A DNA stretch of 60,202 bases, taken from Parasitella parasitica. Its lineage: Eukaryota > Mucoromycota > Mucoromycetes > Mucorales > Mucoraceae. The translations under genes were made by a program, and so were the position numbers. The stretch spans positions 240,716-300,917 of the forward strand of contig MU619261.1 in NCBI GenBank assembly GCA_025201805.1, given 5' to 3'. The notes below the pieces were generated by a model that did no database searches, had not been told where the DNA came from, and worked only from the letters and a program-made list of their open reading frames with translations. Of this stretch, positions 14,417 through 45,438 are shown piece by piece (positions within the stretch are counted from its first letter, which is position 1; each line of letters opens with the position of its first letter).

Positions 14417-14734
14417 ATGCATTTAGTGACTCAAATACTCATCTCATTAGCACTCGCAAGCTACATGGTACAGATATCCCAAGCTTTGCCTACAGATGGA
14501 ATGATTGGTAAATCTGAAGGCCATTCCCTGAGTAAGCGTAACGGCCTCCCTCTTGTTAGCGACTTACTTGGTGGTATTGGCAATAACAGGAGTGGTGCCA
14601 CTCCTAATGCAGTAGCAGCAGAAAATGCTCAACTAATGGGTCATGGCAAGATTAGCAAGACTGGCAAGAGTACAAAATCCAAGAAGCAAAAGAAGCAGAA
14701 AAAGGCGAAGAAACATTTAAAGAAGAATCAATAA
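14417..14734 (+). CDS. secreted kexin-type peptide precursor, short form
   Basis: Single exon of 105 codons. A clear signal peptide (LISLALASYMVQISQA, cut before LPTD) is followed by SLSKR, a dibasic kexin site, and then the peptide-like segment NGLPLVSDLLGGIGN. The C-terminus is extremely Lys-rich (KKQKKQKKAKKHLKKNQ). The LPLV-x-DLLGG core and its position after KR are shared with the larger repeat precursor at 16026-16862, which indicates a duplicated pair. A TATA-like sequence lies about 68 bases upstream. No known domain was recognised. Secretion and Kex2 cleavage are inferred from the motifs only. Confidence 0.75.
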   Translation: MHLVTQILISLALASYMVQISQALPTDGMIGKSEGHSLSKRNGLPLVSDLLGGIGNNRSGATPNAVAAENAQLMGHGKISKTGKSTKSKKQKKQKKAKKHLKKNQ

Positions 14735-16025
14735 ATGGCCCCTGTTATTGAGCAGTTAGGGCAATGGCAAAATAAATCTTGCGTTATGGTGTACTTGAAC
14801 AGCAAAAATAAAGAAGTCTATATACTTACAACAATTGTTGATTGTGGCGAAAGAAGAGTGCATATTCAGATTGTGTGAGGTATCATAATACTGTGATTAC
14901 TTATTCAAGTACATTTATGATTTGTGCATGTACAAGTCATTTAAGCGCTCTATTTAGATCAGAGATCGACCTTACACTGAAATTGACTCAGATCAGTATT
15001 AGAATTTATATTGACAATACAGCCACTATATGATATTACCATAGTATAAGCTTACACAAATAGCTTGTTGAGCTTTCATAGAAGACTAACCATAGTCATT
15101 TTATCCACATTAATGTCATAAACTAGGGACATTGTATAAAATACTATCACGCACATCAAGGATAAATAACGCAATACAGAAAGACTAATTAATGCAATAC
15201 AGAAAAAAAAAAATTAAAAGAGAAATACTACTAAGAAAGGAGCTATACTATGTATGCTTGCATCTACTTTATTCTTCTTTTTGTACATCTTCCTAGTAAA
15301 AACACAGAGGATACATTCACCATTTCTCATGCGGCTGCAACAGTTTTGATTGTTCATACAATGGGCCCCCTAATTGATCTTTCTCCCTTCTTTGCCTACC
15401 CCGTCCTAATTTACCCCTTACATACTAGAGTTGTTGGAGTATTTCAACGTTTAGCTACATATCACACATACAATCTGACACAGGCTTCGAATGAGGCCTG
15501 TGTTTCTTACTTGGGAATAGCGACTGCAAAATACCAAAAAGGGGGAGTATCTCGCTCAAAAAGAAGGGGAAGACTTGGATGAAACGGGATAAGGGATCAG
15601 AAGAAATGGCAGCACCAAATACACCAACAGCAGGTACAACGACAATTGGTAAGGCTGTGTTCTTGAAATATATATGTATATATTTATTCATTTTTATTCA
15701 TTAATATATGATAGCTCTAATGAAAAATGTAATGAAATATTGTGGGTGTAGTACATCATTATACTCAAGACACGTGAGCCACCTTTTGCTTGAGCTTATA
15801 AAGAATATAGACAGGTGGACCTGAAGAAAGCTAAATAATAGGAGTATCTCAATGTTTCCTACTTGCAACACAAATCCTCCCTCTTTATAGTATGCATATG
15901 AGTATATATATATATTTTTTTTTTTTTTACTAAGACCACTATAATCCTTATTCATATATAAGGGTTAATTACCAGTTTTCTTTCCATTGATTTTTAATAC
16001 TCTCTTTTTAACTTTATAGAACTTT
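14735..16025. other. spacer between the two peptide-precursor genes
   Basis: Mostly non-coding. A GC-richer stretch at 15455-15650 contains the hairpin ACACAGGC...GCCTGTGT (about 15478-15502). Open frames across 15250-15691 have no recognised family. A TATATATATATA box at about 15905 lies 120 bases upstream of the repeat-precursor start. Confidence 0.45.
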
Positions 16026-16862
16026 TTGTATAAAATGCGCACACATACATTATTTGCCGTAGCACTTGCTAGTTTCTTGATCAATTTCTCAGAAGCAGCC
16101 ACCTTGAACAAGCGAAATGAAGCGGTCGATATGGTGACAGGTTTTGTGACACCAGGAGGTGTCAGTAACTTGGCTGGAACTGCTGCTAGTTCAGTTCCTT
16201 CCACTGCTGGTGTATTGGGTAAACGTGAAGAGGAAATGAAGAGAGATCTCTTGGGTGGCTTGCCTCTCGTTGGTGGCCTTTTGGGAGGTGATGGAAAGGC
16301 AGCCCCTGCTTCAGCAAAGAAAGGCAGTAAAGGCAAAGGCACAGCATCAACTGGAGAAGATGGTCTTTTAGGCGGTTTAGTAAAGCGAGATCTCTTGGGT
16401 GGTGGCTTGCCTCTCGTTGGTGACCTTTTGGGAGGTGATGGAAAGGCAGCCCCTGCTTCAGCAAAGAAAGGCAGTAAAGGCAAAGGCACAGCATCAACTG
16501 GAGAAGATGGTCTTTTAGGCGGTTTAGTAAAGCGAGATCTCTTAGGTGGTGGCTTGCCTCTCGTTGGTGACCTTTTGGGAGGTGATGGAAAGGCAGCCCC
16601 TGCTTCAGCAAAGAAAGGCAGTAAAGGCAAAGGCACAGCATCAACTGGAGAAGATGGTCTTTTAGGCGGTTTAGTAAAGCGAGATCTCTTAGGTGGTGGC
16701 TTGCCTCTTGTTGGTGACCTTTTGGGAAGTGATGGAAATCCCGGCAAGAAAGCTAAGCAAGCTGCAACAAAGGGCAATGGTCGTGGCCGTAAGAGCAGTA
16801 GTAAAACACAAGAAGAAGGTGGTGTGTTAGGTGGTGGGTTGCCTGTTATTGGCGGCCTTTAG
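16026..16862 (+). CDS. secreted repeat precursor with kexin-bounded units
   Basis: Single exon of 278 residues. A signal peptide (LFAVALASFLINFSEA) is followed by a KR site (TLNKR), a pro-region with LGKR, and then four copies of a core reading KR-DLLGG(G)LPLVGDLLG. Three full spacers between cores are nearly identical (KAAPASAKKGSKGKG, TASTGEDGLLGGLV). Each unit starts at Lys-Arg, so Kex2-type cleavage would release three near-identical peptides of about 47 residues, each with an amphipathic Leu/Gly-rich head and a basic tail, plus a divergent C-terminal one. Repeat precursors processed this way are known in fungi for pheromones, repellent peptides and ribosomally made cyclic peptides. This one resembles none I can name. 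It is paralogous to the gene at 14417. Confidence 0.85.
   Translation: MYKMRTHTLFAVALASFLINFSEAATLNKRNEAVDMVTGFVTPGGVSNLAGTAASSVPSTAGVLGKREEEMKRDLLGGLPLVGGLLGGDGKAAPASAKKGSKGKGTASTGEDGLLGGLVKRDLLGGGLPLVGDLLGGDGKAAPASAKKGSKGKGTASTGEDGLLGGLVKRDLLGGGLPLVGDLLGGDGKAAPASAKKGSKGKGTASTGEDGLLGGLVKRDLLGGGLPLVGDLLGSDGNPGKKAKQAATKGNGRGRKSSSKTQEEGGVLGGGLPVIGGL
16245..16745 (+). repeat. 147-bp tandem coding repeats
   Basis: Core units begin at 16245, 16389, 16536 and 16683. The last two steps are exactly 147 bp and the first is 144 bp (one Gly codon fewer). Sequence identity between units is almost complete at the DNA level, including silent positions, so the array was expanded or homogenised recently. 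Confidence 0.9.
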
Positions 16863-23289: not shown

Positions 23290-24328
23290 TTAAAGTTCGT
23301 ATCCAACAAGAACATAACCTGTTTCTTGGCCGTAAACGGCAGGATCGATCATTTCAAATCCAAGATACATGAAAGCACGCAGCATGGTGCTTAATGTGTC
23401 TTTGTAATCATGGCGATCAACCGCTACAACCAAAGCACTACAGCCCGTTTTTTCCTCGGCAAGTTCAATCAAATGAGTGATACTACATTGCATCATGGCT
23501 ACATGTCAGTCTACATACGCTGTAAGGCCGAGTTTTTCCTTACCATGATTGAAATTCGCCGTCAGCCCAATTCAATAAACCAGCATTTGGGCCAACAAAA
23601 GGAGAGCTGAGAAAAACCGTGTCATTGTAAATAAATGCTTCACAAGAGAGTGTTCTTATCTCTGGAAATCCTGTTCTGGTCGTCTTGATATTCAAAGTCT
23701 CATCAACCTGAGCGTGGAATATGCTAGTTTGACCAAATATTTGGACAATAAAGTCATTTGTAACTGTCCATGTTTATGGTTGTAATGAGCCACACGAAGT
23801 TGTCAGAAGCGTTATACTTACCATTACGACCGTTTACAGTGACAAGATCGACTGCAGTTTCTTGTAAGTTTATTTTTGCATCGTTGTTGTTGTTTTGGCT
23901 ACCTGTAGTGGTAGAAGAAACTGATGTCATGGTTTGTAGAGGAATTGGTAATTCCTTTTTTGCAGGACTTGCTATAATCATGGACTCAAGGTGTTGAACT
24001 GCTTGCTACTGTTACTACTAATACTAATACTCCTACTGCTACTACTGCTGCTGCTACTACTACTGCTACTACTACTGCTACTACTGCTACTACTACTACT
24101 ACTACTGCTGCTGCTGCTACTGCTGCTACTACTACTACTACTATTACTACTACTACTACTAGTACTGCTCGAGGGTATTATATTCTTTTCTTTGGTGGCC
24201 TTGGAAAAGATGGTGCTTGAAGCGTAAAGAAGGATTACCGTGTGTTTATCCAGTGCTGTTACTCTATTTCCTTGTAGGTGTTTCGCTGTTTTGGTTGTTT
24301 GTGGCGTTAAATGGTTAGCACAAATCAT
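23290..24328 (-). CDS. ornithine decarboxylase antizyme, recoded gene
   Basis: The C-terminal half is clearly antizyme: GLLNWADGEFQSCITHLIEL, then AEEKTGCSALVVAVDR, TMLRAFMYLGFEMIDP and VLVGYEL. Antizymes bind ornithine decarboxylase, inhibit it and send it to the proteasome. Their mRNAs need a polyamine-stimulated +1 frameshift at an early stop. Introns 23821-23764 (58 nt) and 23543-23483 join the downstream exons in one frame back to 23987. Upstream there is a frame ending CCU-UGA at 23986-23988, from which a +1 step enters that frame exactly. An alternative upstream frame, MICANH at 24328 running through a Ser repeat, ends CCA-UGA at 23978-23980. The 5' exon structure is therefore unresolved. 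A short upstream ORF begins near 24344. Confidence 0.82.
24003..24165. repeat. trinucleotide repeat coding for Ser (minus) frames
   Basis: About 50 units of ACT/GCT on the plus strand, read as AGT/AGC on the antizyme strand. In one minus frame it gives poly-Ser, in the next Val/Ala, and in the third it is full of stops. It lies directly upstream of the antizyme frameshift region. Confidence 0.85.
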
Positions 24329-41844: not shown

Positions 41845-42150
41845 TTAAGCCTTGTAGGAGATGGCACCGTCGAAACGCTGCTTGAACCATTCCATGGCCT
41901 CTTCCTTCTTGATTTGGTGCTTGACACCGACCTTGGCCTTGCAGTGCTTTCTGCGGGCAACACGGTTACCGGGACGACCCATAACTACGTAGTAGTCCAT
42001 ACCATAGATACCAATGGAGGGGTCATACTTGATACCCAAATCAATGTGTTCATCAATACCGAAACCAAAGTTACCAGTTTGAGAAAAGTTGCGGGCCTTG
42101 AGTTCGTATTCCTTGACCTTCAAACCACGTTCAAGGATTTCCTCAGCCTT
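41845..42150 (-). CDS. RPL11: 60S ribosomal protein L11 (uL5), 5' part lost in gap
   Basis: The C-terminal 101 residues are highly conserved L11/uL5: [75 protein letters not shown] and [17 protein letters not shown]11 sits in the central protuberance next to 5S rRNA. The coding region is open up to the run of N at 42151, so about 70 residues, any introns and the promoter are missing from this assembly. Confidence 0.96.
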
Positions 42151-42955
42151 NNNNNNNNNNNNNNNNNNNNNNNNNNNNNNNNNNNNNNNNNNNNNNNNNN
42201 NNNNNNNNNNNNNNNNNNNNNNNNNNNNNNNNNNNNNNNNNNNNNNNNNNNNNNNNNNNNNNNNNNNNNNNNNNNNNNNNNNNNNNNNNNNNNNNNNNNN
42301 NNNNNNNNNNNNNNNNNNNNNNNNNNNNNNNNNNNNNNNNNNNNNNNNNNNNNNNNNNNNNNNNNNNNNNNNNNNNNNNNNNNNNNNNNNNNNNNNNNNN
42401 NNNNNNNNNNNNNNNNNNNNNNNNNNNNNNNNNNNNNNNNNNNNNNNNNNNNNNNNNNNNNNNNNNNNNNNNNNNNNNNNNNNNNNNNNNNNNNNNNNNN
42501 NNNNNNNNNNNNNNNNNNNNNNNNNNNNNNNNNNNNNNNNNNNNNNNNNNNNNNNNNNNNNNNNNNNNNNNNNNNNNNNNNNNNNNNNNNNNNNNNNNNN
42601 NNNNNNNNNNNNNNNNNNNNNNNNNNNNNNNNNNNNNNNNNNNNNNNNNNNNNNNNNNNNNNNNNNNNNNNNNNNNNNNNNNNNNNNNNNNNNNNNNNNN
42701 NNNNNNNNNNNNNNNNNNNNNNNNNNNNNNNNNNNNNNNNNNNNNNNNNNNNNNNNNNNNNNNNNNNNNNNNNNNNNNNNNNNNNNNNNNNNNNNNNNNN
42801 NNNNNNNNNNNNNNNNNNNNNNNNNNNNNNNNNNNNNNNNNNNNNNNNNNNNNNNNNNNNNNNNNNNNNNNNNNNNNNNNNNNNNNNNNNNNNNNNNNNN
42901 NNNNNNNNNNNNNNNNNNNNNNNNNNNNNNNNNNNNNNNNNNNNNNNNNNNNNNN
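42151..42955. other. assembly gap (805 N)
   Basis: Unsequenced bases that remove the 5' part of the ribosomal protein L11 gene. The right flank begins with a run of A (42956-42982), which may explain the break. Confidence 0.99.
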
Positions 42956-43768
42956 AAAAAAAAAAAAAAAAAAAAAAAAAAAGATGGATTTTGAACATGG
43001 CTATAGCTATTAGCAAGAAAAATTTGAGCAGCATAGGGCAATCACAGAAACGATGTTTACATACAGCAAGCATGTGTATATTTCGCAGACTTTGATATGT
43101 AGCATACGCCAGTAATGGTTCAGAGCAGAGCGAGTGATTTGTCAATGGCTAGCACTCACTGTTGTAAGAACAGGTACTATTAAACGCATACACGTAAAAA
43201 CAACGACTTGAACAATTGGCTTCATCAGTTGGTATTTTGCAACAAAAAATCAGGATGGCCTCATCCGAAACATTGGTTATCTCGGACATAACAACAGTAA
43301 TATCAGCGAGACGGTTTACTCATTTAAATGCCTTTCATGGTACATTATGCATCAAAAACTCTATACAACTAGTAATCGAGGGCTCATATTCACGTATTTG
43401 TAATGATTTATCAGTTGCTGTGTGATTATGACACAAATATTTGTCTGCATAATTAAAGGATCCAATGCGTAGTAAACAGACCAGATACCTCATCATTGAG
43501 TATATATACATATCTGTGATATTTATTTCCTTTGAATACATGTATGTTAGTTTTAACAAAATTACAAAAGGCTCAACAAGCACCAGGTCAAGTACAAAAA
43601 GGAAGGGGAATATGATGATAAAAAAAAAAAAAGGTGTGTGTGTGTGTGTGTGCTTCCCTGAAGAGAAGAAAAAATATAGTATACAGAATAATGAAAAAGA
43701 TATGTTATATAGTGTCTTGTTTTGTGTGTGGAGAATGCATTGAAAAATAGGTTTGGGGCTGTAGGAAA
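42956..43768. other. intergenic with A-run and TG repeat
   Basis: Starts with an A-run of 27, contains a TG microsatellite at 43633-43652 preceded by an A-run, and includes the 3' flank of the bHLH gene. No coding exon was recognised. Confidence 0.5.
43633..43652. repeat. TG microsatellite
   Basis: Ten TG units next to a 12-base A-run in the 3' flank of the bHLH gene. Confidence 0.7.
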
Positions 43769-45438
43769 TCAAGCGGATACCGTAGTTTTGATCAAAGAAT
43801 CGTTGGGAGGCGCCGCAGTGGAGGTATCTACGTCCATTTTTGTTTCTGGGGGTTTCTCATTGTGCCAGCGATGGTGGTGATGGGAAGGAGACTGATCATA
43901 AATATGATATGGTCTATTTATGTCCGCTGGAGCCAGACTCTTTTGCTGCTGATGTTGCTGCTGAGCCAACATCTTTTGATGTAATTGCAGCTTTTCTTGA
44001 AGTTCGATCAATTGTCGCTGTTGGGTCTTGTGCTGCAATAAAGCTTTATCACTGCTGTTCGTATTTGCAGCAAAAGTTGTTTTGCTGGCAGGCTCTGCTC
44101 TTGGTGCTGCAGCAGGAGCGGCAGTTGTTGATTTTTTAAAATAAGGTTGACTACTCGGTGTCAAAGAAGACGGCCTGCTTAAGATACCCATCCGGCTTTC
44201 CATTTCAACACGTACTTCCAAATTCTTGATCTTTTCTCGTAAATTTCGGTTTCTTTTGTCGAGGTACTTGATGTAATCAACCGCTTTAAATAAAACTGTG
44301 CTTTTAGAGTTGTTGATGTTTTTCAAGGTTGGGACAATTTCTGTTAGATCTTTGAATCCTGATCTGATCATACTTCGACGCTTTTGCTCTGATGCAATGT
44401 GGTTGTTTCGCTTTTCTTCTTCTGTTAGCAATTCCTTGTGTGGTTTGCCACGTCGAATAGCACCACCGCCACCGCCACCGCCACCAGCACCACCACCACT
44501 GCCATGAATACTACTGATGTTGCCATGAGTACCGCTGCTATGACTTGAGTTTGGACTATGTGAGACATCATTTTCATCATTCTGTTGTCTTGGTGCTAAT
44601 GATGCTTCACGCGAAACTGGAGGCTTGATAAAAGGAGTAGTAATAGCATTACTTTGTTGAAGGTAAACAGCATCTGGTCTATCCTGATGCTGTTGTTGCT
44701 GTTGTTGCTGTTGGTGCTGTTGGTGCTGTTGGTGCTGTTGGTGCTGTTGGTGCTGTTGGTGCTGTTGGTGCTGTTGGTGATGTTGGTGCTGATGGTGCTG
44801 AGGGTGCTGATGGTGCTGAGGGTGCTGAGGGTGGTGTTGCATATCAAGGTCTTTGTTAAAGTATCTCTTTTGTTCGTCCAGCGACTGAAGAATTGATGAT
44901 TGCCGATGGTATTCTTCGTCTGGTTGATGGAAGGGATGCTGAGAATGTTGAAAATGATGTTGTTGGTGGTGGTTATCCAAAGACATGGGAGGAGGATGCT
45001 GAGTATCATACATTGTAAATTGAGGATCTATTTGCATGTTAGGATCAACGAAAAACTGGTCCAAAAATTCGCTGAACGCTCTATGGTCCTGCTCATCCAA
45101 AACAGCATGATTCATGGACACAGGCATAGTTTCCATATTAAATAAATCAGTTTCACTCATAGGAGGGGGTGGTGGTGGTATATCGAGAGGAATTGGCATG
45201 GCAAATTCAGGATCTAAGCCCAAACTAAATTGGAAGTCTGTAAAGTGGTTTTAGGCTGGTGGTTCATTTACACGGCTTATTTTTTTTTTTTTTTTTTTTT
45301 TTTTTTACCTTCGAATGCAACAGGCTCTTGCAAGGGCGCCTCTGCCGATTGCCGCTGCTGGCTGCTACTGTAATCCACGAAATTCCAATCCTGCGCATTG
45401 TGCTGCTGATTGAATATATTGCTATTCTGGTAACTCAT
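43769..45438 (-). CDS. bHLH transcription factor (E-box type)
   Basis: Exons 45438-45309 and 45237-43769 (71-nt intron starting at an A-run) give 532 residues. The bHLH is at about residues 310-370: basic region NNHIASEQKRRSMIRSGF with the His-Glu-Arg triad (H, E, R spaced by four) that reads CACGTG-type E-boxes, helix 1 KDLTEIVPTL, loop with NNSKS, helix 2 TVLFKAVDYIKYLDKRN, followed by a short leucine-zipper-like NLREKIKNLEVRVEME. The N-terminus is acidic and proline-rich (PPPPPP). A His/Gln repeat (44689-44842) and a Gly run precede the domain. The C-terminal third is Gln-rich. The repeats suggest an activator. The basic region resembles Mlx/Mondo-type and fungal HLH regulators; targets are unknown. 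Confidence 0.92.
44689..44842. repeat. His/Gln-coding CAG-CAC repeat
   Basis: Tandem GGTGCTGTT-type units on the plus strand give alternating Gln and His codons in the bHLH protein. Nine-base periodicity is visible over about 80 bases. Confidence 0.8.
45280..45306. repeat. poly-T run inside bHLH intron
   Basis: Twenty-seven T on the plus strand, i.e. an A-run directly after the GT donor of the bHLH intron on the minus strand. Confidence 0.8.

What the first reader, a model, noticed from the sequence alone, without database searches (positions are those of the whole stretch)
16026..16862. Undescribed tandem-repeat peptide precursor with Kex2-bounded 49-residue units
Seen: signal peptide, KR before every unit, four copies of DLLGG(G)LPLVGDLLG, almost identical spacers at DNA level (147-bp period). 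Known: fungi make pheromones, repellent peptides and cyclic RiPPs from such precursors, mostly described in Dikarya. Inference: a Mucoromycota peptide family with a conserved amphipathic head and basic tail, perhaps antimicrobial, surface-active or signalling. Recent homogenisation of repeats suggests selection for dosage or identical product.
Basis: partly seen in the sequence, partly recalled or inferred. Interest (0 to 1): 0.85.

Follow-up and report, generated by a model that had tools for sequence, protein, structure and literature searches.

The report
Cleavable peptide precursor of Mucor-like moulds
A mould related to Mucor and Parasitella carries a gene for a secreted protein that is probably cut into several small peptides with water-avoiding ends and a positively charged middle; they may coat the fungal surface, but nobody has tested this.

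Summary
ORF 16035-16862 (+), 275 aa, has a signal-like start and six KR sites; four units (46, 47, 47, 59 aa) follow KR. Units 1-3 are nearly identical DNA; unit 4 differs. Ten homologues were found: Parasitella, six named Mucor species, three unnamed. So it is a conserved gene of Mucoraceae, without Pfam match. The near-identical repeat was seen only here: Parasitella has three diverged units (48-71% identical), Mucor precursors hold several unlike KR-bounded peptides, often one acidic and one strongly basic. What is conserved is a block design: hydrophobic head, basic middle of free sequence, hydrophobic end. Best reading: a Kex2-cut polyprotein making disordered, hydrophobic-cationic-hydrophobic peptides that coat wall or surface, working like Ustilago repellents; membership in that family is not shown. 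The class (KEP) is known, also in Mucoromycota; this family was not found in the held literature. Cleavage, expression and function are untested; codon usage gives no sign of high expression, and the P4 residue of the sites is unfavourable by a published yeast Kex2 matrix.

The parts
16035..16862 (+). ORF, 275 aa, secreted-type peptide precursor
   Evidence: most homologues start with the same or nearly the same MRTHTLFA
16035..16100 (+). signal-peptide-like N-terminus (22 aa; cleavage point judged by eye, no signal-peptide program run)
   Evidence: 20 of 22 residues identical to P0001 and to P0008; helix in the AF2 model
16110..16115 (+). KR site 1
16116..16220 (+). 35-aa pro-region, 22 of 35 residues identical in Parasitella
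16221..16226 (+). KR site 2
16227..16238 (+). EEEM, four residues between two KR; possible remnant of the acidic peptide that stands near here in Parasitella and Mucor
   Evidence: sequence; inference
16239..16244 (+). KR site 3
16245..16382 (+). unit 1, 46 aa
16383..16388 (+). KR site 4
16389..16529 (+). unit 2, 47 aa
16530..16535 (+). KR site 5
16536..16676 (+). unit 3, 47 aa, identical protein to unit 2
16677..16682 (+). KR site 6
16683..16859 (+). unit 4, 59 aa, net +3, corresponds to the last peptide of the homologues
16818..16859 (+). C-terminal hydrophobic block GGVLGGGLPVIGGL, a second copy of the head motif
16239..16738 (+). 147-bp tandem repeat, 3.4 copies
14417..14734 (+). neighbouring ORF, 105 aa: signal-like start, one KR, one head NGLPLVSDLLGGIG, lysine-rich tail; likely single-unit relative
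   Evidence: no homologue found
14534..14539 (+). KR site of the neighbouring ORF

Best explanation
The gene encodes a secreted polyprotein that enters the ER, is cut after KR by the Golgi kexin and trimmed of KR by a carboxypeptidase, releasing four disordered peptides of 46-59 aa. Each is a three-block amphiphile: a hydrophobic head (LLGGGLPLVGDLLG), a basic middle (GKG/RGRG type) and a hydrophobic end (GLLGGLV or LGGGLPVIGGL). I infer that the basic middle sticks to the polyglucuronate-rich Mucorales wall while the two hydrophobic ends associate with each other and face air or other surfaces, giving a surface-active, water-repelling or adhesive coat, as repellents do in Ustilago. Shown here: a conserved coding gene, a conserved block design, KR before the heads, kexin and carboxypeptidase candidates in the genome. 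Inferred: secretion, cleavage, wall binding, self-association, coat function.
For: Homologues with conserved N-terminus, KR sites and blocks. Mean pairwise identity of the last peptide over 36 pairs of 9 sequences: head 0.87, middle 0.51, tail 0.76. The middle stays basic: net +5 to +14 in the seven head-bearing peptides that start right after KR and come nearest the C-terminus, +11 to +16 in the three whose head follows ER. Charge is kept while letters change, as expected for adsorption or assembly. Of 46 KR sites in 12 proteins, P1' is D 16, S 12, N 7, G 7, I 2, E 1, A 1, never P, K or R; acidic or small residues at P1', P2' and P4' were over-represented in cleaved Kex2 sites (PMC2515848, Discussion part 1 read). 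The own genome has a kexin candidate with S8 and P domains and S10 carboxypeptidase matches. AF2: mean pLDDT 45 for the precursor, 60 for unit 4, no fold. Rep1 of Ustilago has a like plan: 12 repeats of 34-55 aa between Kex2 sites, peptides forming surface-active fibrils on hyphae (PMC4617103 passages). Polyuronides make up 25% of sporangiophore walls in M. circinelloides (PMC6433966 passages).
Against: No transcript, peptide or phenotype was available. Codon usage is ordinary: CAI 0.41 (repeat collapsed) against 0.27-0.43 for 14 neighbouring ORFs, and the reverse complement scores 0.46, so the abundance expected of a coat is not indicated. The P4 residue of the three LVKR sites is Leu (0.09) and of EMKR is Glu (0.05), poor in the published S. 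cerevisiae Kex2 matrix, although P3 is good (V 0.91, M 0.71); one third of the proteins tested in that paper stayed uncut. KR before heads beyond K/R composition reaches P<0.05 in only 2 of 12 proteins. Avoidance of KR/RR inside peptides is not significant in any of 12. For the pair this protein-Parasitella the tail (0.47) is less conserved than the middle (0.60). Internal units have net charge 0 or +1 and acidic heads, so binding to an acidic wall could be weak. Six C. [quoted passage not shown] Absence of hydrophobins in this genome is not shown: the search and its controls were silent.
Confidence: 0.4

Rival explanations
1. Membrane-active peptides: the hydrophobic head inserts into membranes of competing microbes or hosts and the basic middle provides attraction, as proposed for the Ece1 polyprotein of Candida.
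For: Same plan as Ece1 (several unlike KR-bounded peptides from one secreted precursor; PMC12153327 passages); strongly basic last peptides (+10 to +15) in Mucor; helical hydrophobic moment of the head at the 97th percentile of its own shuffles.
Against: The head is acidic (D at positions 1 and 12), glycine-rich and contains proline; AF2 on unit 4 gives only a 4-residue helix in a stretch of block-mean pLDDT 56-57; internal units net 0 or +1; no related chain in the PDB sequence search with one unit.
Confidence: 0.2
2. Uncleaved or partly cleaved structural wall protein in which KR sites are linkers and the repeated hydrophobic motifs cross-link chains.
For: KR placement beyond composition is significant only here and in Parasitella, 2 of 12; in P0005, P0006 and P0007 the last head follows ER, with KR six residues earlier; P4 Leu or Glu is poor in the yeast Kex2 matrix.
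Against: All four heads here directly follow KR with D at P1', a favourable prime side; a kexin candidate is present.
Confidence: 0.16
3. Signalling peptide or pheromone-like precursor.
For: General resemblance to alpha-factor type precursors; repeats raise dose (inference).
Against: Long peptides with a divergent middle (mean identity 0.51); Mucoromycotina are reported to use apocarotenoids as sexual pheromones (PMC6339444 section 18); no Ste13-type XA/XP dipeptide follows the four unit KR sites (by eye).
Confidence: 0.1
4. Interaction factor for mycoparasitism or host contact.
For: Best hit P0001 is from Parasitella parasitica, a mycoparasite (recalled).
Against: Homologues occur in six named Mucor species, so the family is not tied to mycoparasitism.
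Confidence: 0.06
5. Cyclic RiPP precursor of ustiloxin type.
For: Signal plus Kex2-bounded repeats is the shared plan (PMC7329392 abstract).
Against: No Tyr, Trp, Phe or Cys from residue 71 on; no UstYa match in the genome, but the controls were silent too; none in 10 neighbouring ORFs scanned.
Confidence: 0.03

Closest known systems
Rep1 repellent precursor of Ustilago maydis
   Same: Secreted precursor, amphipathic units of about 35-55 aa separated by Kex2 sites, longer last fragment (PMC4617103 and PMC2515848 passages)
   Different: 4 units against 12; no sequence comparison could be made (Rep1 sequence not held here); wall location, fibrils and surface activity untested; units here carry a basic middle
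KEX2-processed repeat proteins (KEPs) as surveyed in 2019 and 2020
   Same: At least three repeated units between dibasic sites behind a signal-like start: meets the printed repeat criterion of the 2020 survey if KR is counted
   Different: The 10 homologues lack near-identical repeats, so repeat-based surveys could miss most of the family; I did not find it named in the parts of the two surveys that I saw, and their supplementary lists were not readable here
Ece1 polyprotein of Candida albicans
   Same: Several unlike KR-bounded peptides from one secreted precursor, as in the Mucor homologues
   Different: No sequence comparison was made; the heads here are glycine-rich and acidic, and no long helix is predicted
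Hydrophobins
   Same: Proposed role (surface activity)
   Different: No cysteines after residue 22; no Pfam match

Membership tests
Kex2-processed repeat protein (KEP) | N-terminal signal peptide | tested here: inconclusive
   Hydrophobic N-terminus, 20 of 22 residues as in P0001 and in P0008; no signal-peptide predictor available
Kex2-processed repeat protein (KEP) | At least three tandem repeats of 8 aa or more between dibasic sites, none over 100 aa | tested here: met
   Units of 46, 47, 47 aa between KR sites plus a fourth sharing the head; criterion read in PMC7329392 section 13. That screen also counts KK, RK and RR, which I did not apply
Kex2-processed repeat protein (KEP) | Actual cleavage by Kex2 | not testable with these tools
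   Kexin candidate present; P1' and P3 favourable, P4 unfavourable
Rep1-type repellent | Amphipathic Kex2-bounded units of 34-55 aa | tested here: met
   Three of four units are 46-47 aa, the last 59; ends more hydrophobic than middle, P 0.0002-0.013 for 4 of 4 units
Rep1-type repellent | Sequence homology to Rep1 | not tested
   Rep1 sequence not held; the profile search, in which only 7994 candidates were scored, did not return a named non-Mucoraceae protein
Rep1-type repellent | Hyphal surface location, surface-active fibrils | not testable with these tools
   none
Hydrophobin | Eight cysteines | tested here: not met
   0 Cys after residue 22; no Pfam match
Ustiloxin-type (dikaritin) RiPP | UstYa/DUF3328 gene nearby | tested here: inconclusive
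   None in 10 neighbouring ORFs scanned, out of the 54 ORFs of 90 aa or more listed for the window plus shorter ones; genome search empty but controls silent
Ustiloxin-type (dikaritin) RiPP | Tyr-containing core peptide (recalled) | tested here: not met
   No aromatic residue from residue 71 on

The most novel reading that the evidence does not exclude
The head LP[ILV]VG[DGE]LL[GS]G placed shortly after a basic cleavage residue marks a wide, unnamed class of fungal self-assembling peptides. Two other precursors from unnamed organisms carry it three times each: P0012 (243 aa; KR one or five residues before the D in 2 of 3 copies) and P0011 (287 aa; R of AR directly before D or E in 3 of 3). In Mucoraceae, whose order is reported by a paper title to have spores without rodlet hydrophobins, such peptides, often made as oppositely charged sets from one precursor, would be the missing surface coat, perhaps laid down as a coacervate.
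Probability: 0.12. Interest if true: 0.8.

Novelty: new member of a known kind. Interest (0 to 1): 0.45.

Why it matters
What makes surfaces of Mucorales water-repellent or adhesive is, as far as I know, poorly understood; a paper title seen in two reference lists says their spores harbour no rodlet hydrophobins (the paper is not held). A conserved peptide precursor of Mucoraceae at one locus is a concrete, deletable candidate. It would also show how a precursor can go from several unlike peptides (Mucor) to one amplified peptide (this genome), which repeat-based genome mining would see only at the last step.

Tried and rejected
Pfam on the protein and the neighbouring ORF: nothing at E<=1; on P0001, P0008, P0009, P0011, P0012: one match at E 0.24 below cut-off, to P0012. 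PDB by sequence: whole protein two weak matches at E 0.64 and 0.65, one unit none. Homologue search with the 105-aa ORF: 7 candidates, none at E<=1. Own-genome search with each protein found only itself; head patterns found no further KR-bounded locus. Dibasic avoidance: not significant in 12 of 12. KR-to-head association: P<0.05 in 2 of 12. Codon adaptation as a sign of expression: uninformative. Hydrophobin and UstYa absence: cannot be claimed, controls silent. AF2 models too low in confidence for a fold search; none was run. The excess of synonymous change in the neighbour's motif (5 synonymous, 1 nonsynonymous codon; 5.9 nonsynonymous expected, P=0.0001) is biased because the motif was picked by its protein likeness. 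The second head copy at the C-terminus shows no such excess (2 synonymous, 4 nonsynonymous). Motif strings in the paper library, matched anywhere in a word: 0 papers and 1 paper, on myeloma V(D)J sequences. Cyclic RiPP and pheromone readings were considered and set low. A bacterial promoter and terminator scan has no bearing on a fungal promoter.

Full report
WHAT IS THERE. The window is part of a 30.7-Mb, 232-contig assembly. The ORF at 16035-16862 codes for 275 aa. It starts with MRTHTLFAVALASFLINFSEAA, then a pro-region, then four units each directly after KR. Units 1-3 differ by one Gly codon and one or two single-codon changes; unit 4 keeps the head and has its own middle and end. TRF reports the 147-bp array at 97% matches.

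IT IS A CONSERVED CODING GENE. A protein search gave 11 proteins at E<=1. Ten look like homologues: Parasitella parasitica (59% identity, whole length), six named Mucor species (ambiguus, fragilis, bainieri, velutinosus, circinelloides, lusitanicus) and three without an organism name (P0005, P0009, P0010; P0010 is the weakest, E 6e-4, and its C-terminus looks like another gene model). The eleventh, P0011, has E 0.05. None of the 11 is identical to the window protein. A profile search with the 11-sequence alignment (the query and the ten) returned the same ten, which it must, plus P0012 at E 0.28; P0011 did not come back. In both searches only about 8000 candidates sharing most words were scored, so relatives elsewhere are not excluded. 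As far as seen, the family is in Mucoraceae (lineage of Parasitella) and unnamed records.

THE NEAR-IDENTICAL REPEAT IS LOCAL, THE DESIGN IS SHARED. Cutting each precursor at KR and comparing peptides of 20 aa or more, 3 pairs with at least 60% identity over 30 aligned columns exist in the window protein and none in any of the 10 homologues (gaps counted). With gaps left out, the three head-bearing units of Parasitella are 71, 58 and 48% identical to each other and the last two of M. lusitanicus 48%. The Mucor precursors hold a near-neutral GLPLAG-type peptide (net 0 or +1), a glycine-rich acidic peptide (net -1 to -7, P0002 to P0009), in three of them (P0002, P0004, P0008) a basic peptide, and a strongly basic last peptide (net +10 to +15; in P0003 an internal KR splits it). 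Parasitella has an acidic 28-aa peptide (-5) before its units; here only EEEM stands between two KR. This genome therefore seems to have lost the acidic peptide and multiplied one unit. Recent duplication suffices to explain the identity of units 1-3.

THE BLOCK DESIGN. In the last peptide, mean identity over 36 pairs of nine sequences is 0.87 for the first 16 residues, 0.51 for the middle and 0.76 for the last 13 (P0003, P0010 and the 105-aa neighbour were left out). The pair window-Parasitella departs from this: head 0.81, middle 0.60, tail 0.47. I tested the 22 peptides of 40 aa or more from 12 proteins: in 18 the two ends are more hydrophobic than the middle at P<0.05 against shuffles of the same peptide. 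The four that fail are one each of P0003, P0004 (P 0.056), P0010 and the 105-aa neighbour. These sequences are related, so the 18 are not independent. AF2 predicts no fold: mean pLDDT 45 on the precursor with 11 sequences, 60 on unit 4 alone.

ORF 14417-14734 (105 aa) has a signal-like start, one KR, a head NGLPLVSDLLGGIG and a lysine-rich tail, without the hydrophobic end. Genome-wide the degenerate head pattern occurs 15 times (9 for the pattern read backwards); the five here are the only ones with KR within 8 residues upstream. No homologue was found. I take it as a likely single-unit relative.

PROCESSING. The genome holds a kexin candidate with S8 and P domains, followed by a hydrophobic segment and an acidic tail (by eye), and S10 carboxypeptidase matches. 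In all 46 KR sites of the 12 proteins P1' is D, S, N, G, I, E or A. Published Kex2 work reports over-representation of acidic or small residues at P1', P2' and P4' (PMC2515848: passages, section 7 and Discussion part 1 read). Against easy cleavage: in that paper's matrix P4 Leu scores 0.09 and P4 Glu 0.05, the residues found at the LVKR and EMKR sites, while P3 Val 0.91 and Met 0.71 are good; the matrix is for the yeast enzyme. KR placement against K/R composition reaches P<0.05 only for this protein and Parasitella (2 of 12); avoidance of KR/RR inside peptides is not significant (0 of 12). In P0005, P0006 and P0007 the last head follows ER, with KR six residues earlier.

HOW IT MOST LIKELY WORKS. 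Shown: conserved precursor, KR-bounded peptides, hydrophobic-basic-hydrophobic blocks with free middle sequence. Inferred: kexin release, binding of the basic middle to wall polyuronides (25% of sporangiophore walls, 12% of hyphal walls and under 2% in spores of M. circinelloides, PMC6433966 passages), association through the ends, and a surface coat or adhesive. The functional model is the Rep1 repellent of Ustilago (PMC4617103 passages; the original papers are not held). Membership in that family is not claimed: its sequence, fibrils and location were not tested. Against a coat: ordinary codon usage (0.41 with the repeat collapsed; 1 of 14 neighbours higher; reverse complement 0.46), near-neutral internal units, and no expression data.

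NOVELTY. KEPs are a known class: a 2019 survey of 250 secretomes (PMC6339444: abstract, Results and section 18 read, other passages by search) and a 2020 survey of 1461 strains with 357 KEPs in 38 of 39 Mucoromycota strains (PMC7329392: abstract, section 13, part 1 of section 6, passages). 'Parasitella' does not occur in the main text of the 2020 survey; I did not search the 2019 one for it. Their supplementary tables could not be read, so family members may be listed there unnamed. Motif strings occur in no relevant paper of the library, and 'Kex2-processed repeat proteins' together with 'Mucor' only in those two surveys. So: an undescribed family, as far as these searches go, of a known kind.

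A WIDER LEAD. Two sub-threshold matches, P0011 (E 0.05) and P0012 (E 0.28), are repetitive proteins with LP[ILV]VG[DGE]LL[GS]G three times each. P0012 also has SASAEA-like stretches after KR. At these E-values, and with glycine- and leucine-rich sequences, convergence is quite possible.

Noticed in passing
14417-14734 (+): 105-aa ORF with signal-like start and one KR-bounded head, likely relative of the repeat precursor; no homologue in the protein database search.
   Followed up: yes
15477-15504: 12-pair inverted repeat with 4-base loop between the two precursor genes, inside an unverified 110-aa ORF (15250-15582).
   Followed up: no
G000:C27:67085-67270 (L018): Second proprotein-convertase P-domain match in the genome, with one stop in the matched stretch; intron or broken copy not resolved.
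   Followed up: no
   Followed up: partly
P0003 (Mucor fragilis): An internal KR splits the last basic peptide into two, unlike the other Mucor and Parasitella homologues seen.
   Followed up: no
42120-43073: A long stretch of this minus-strand ORF reads as X in translation (Ns in the window).
   Followed up: no
23978-24328 (-) and 43769-45199 (-): A long poly-serine tract from a TAC repeat, and a bHLH protein with INO4-type match and a His/Gln repeat tract.
   Followed up: no
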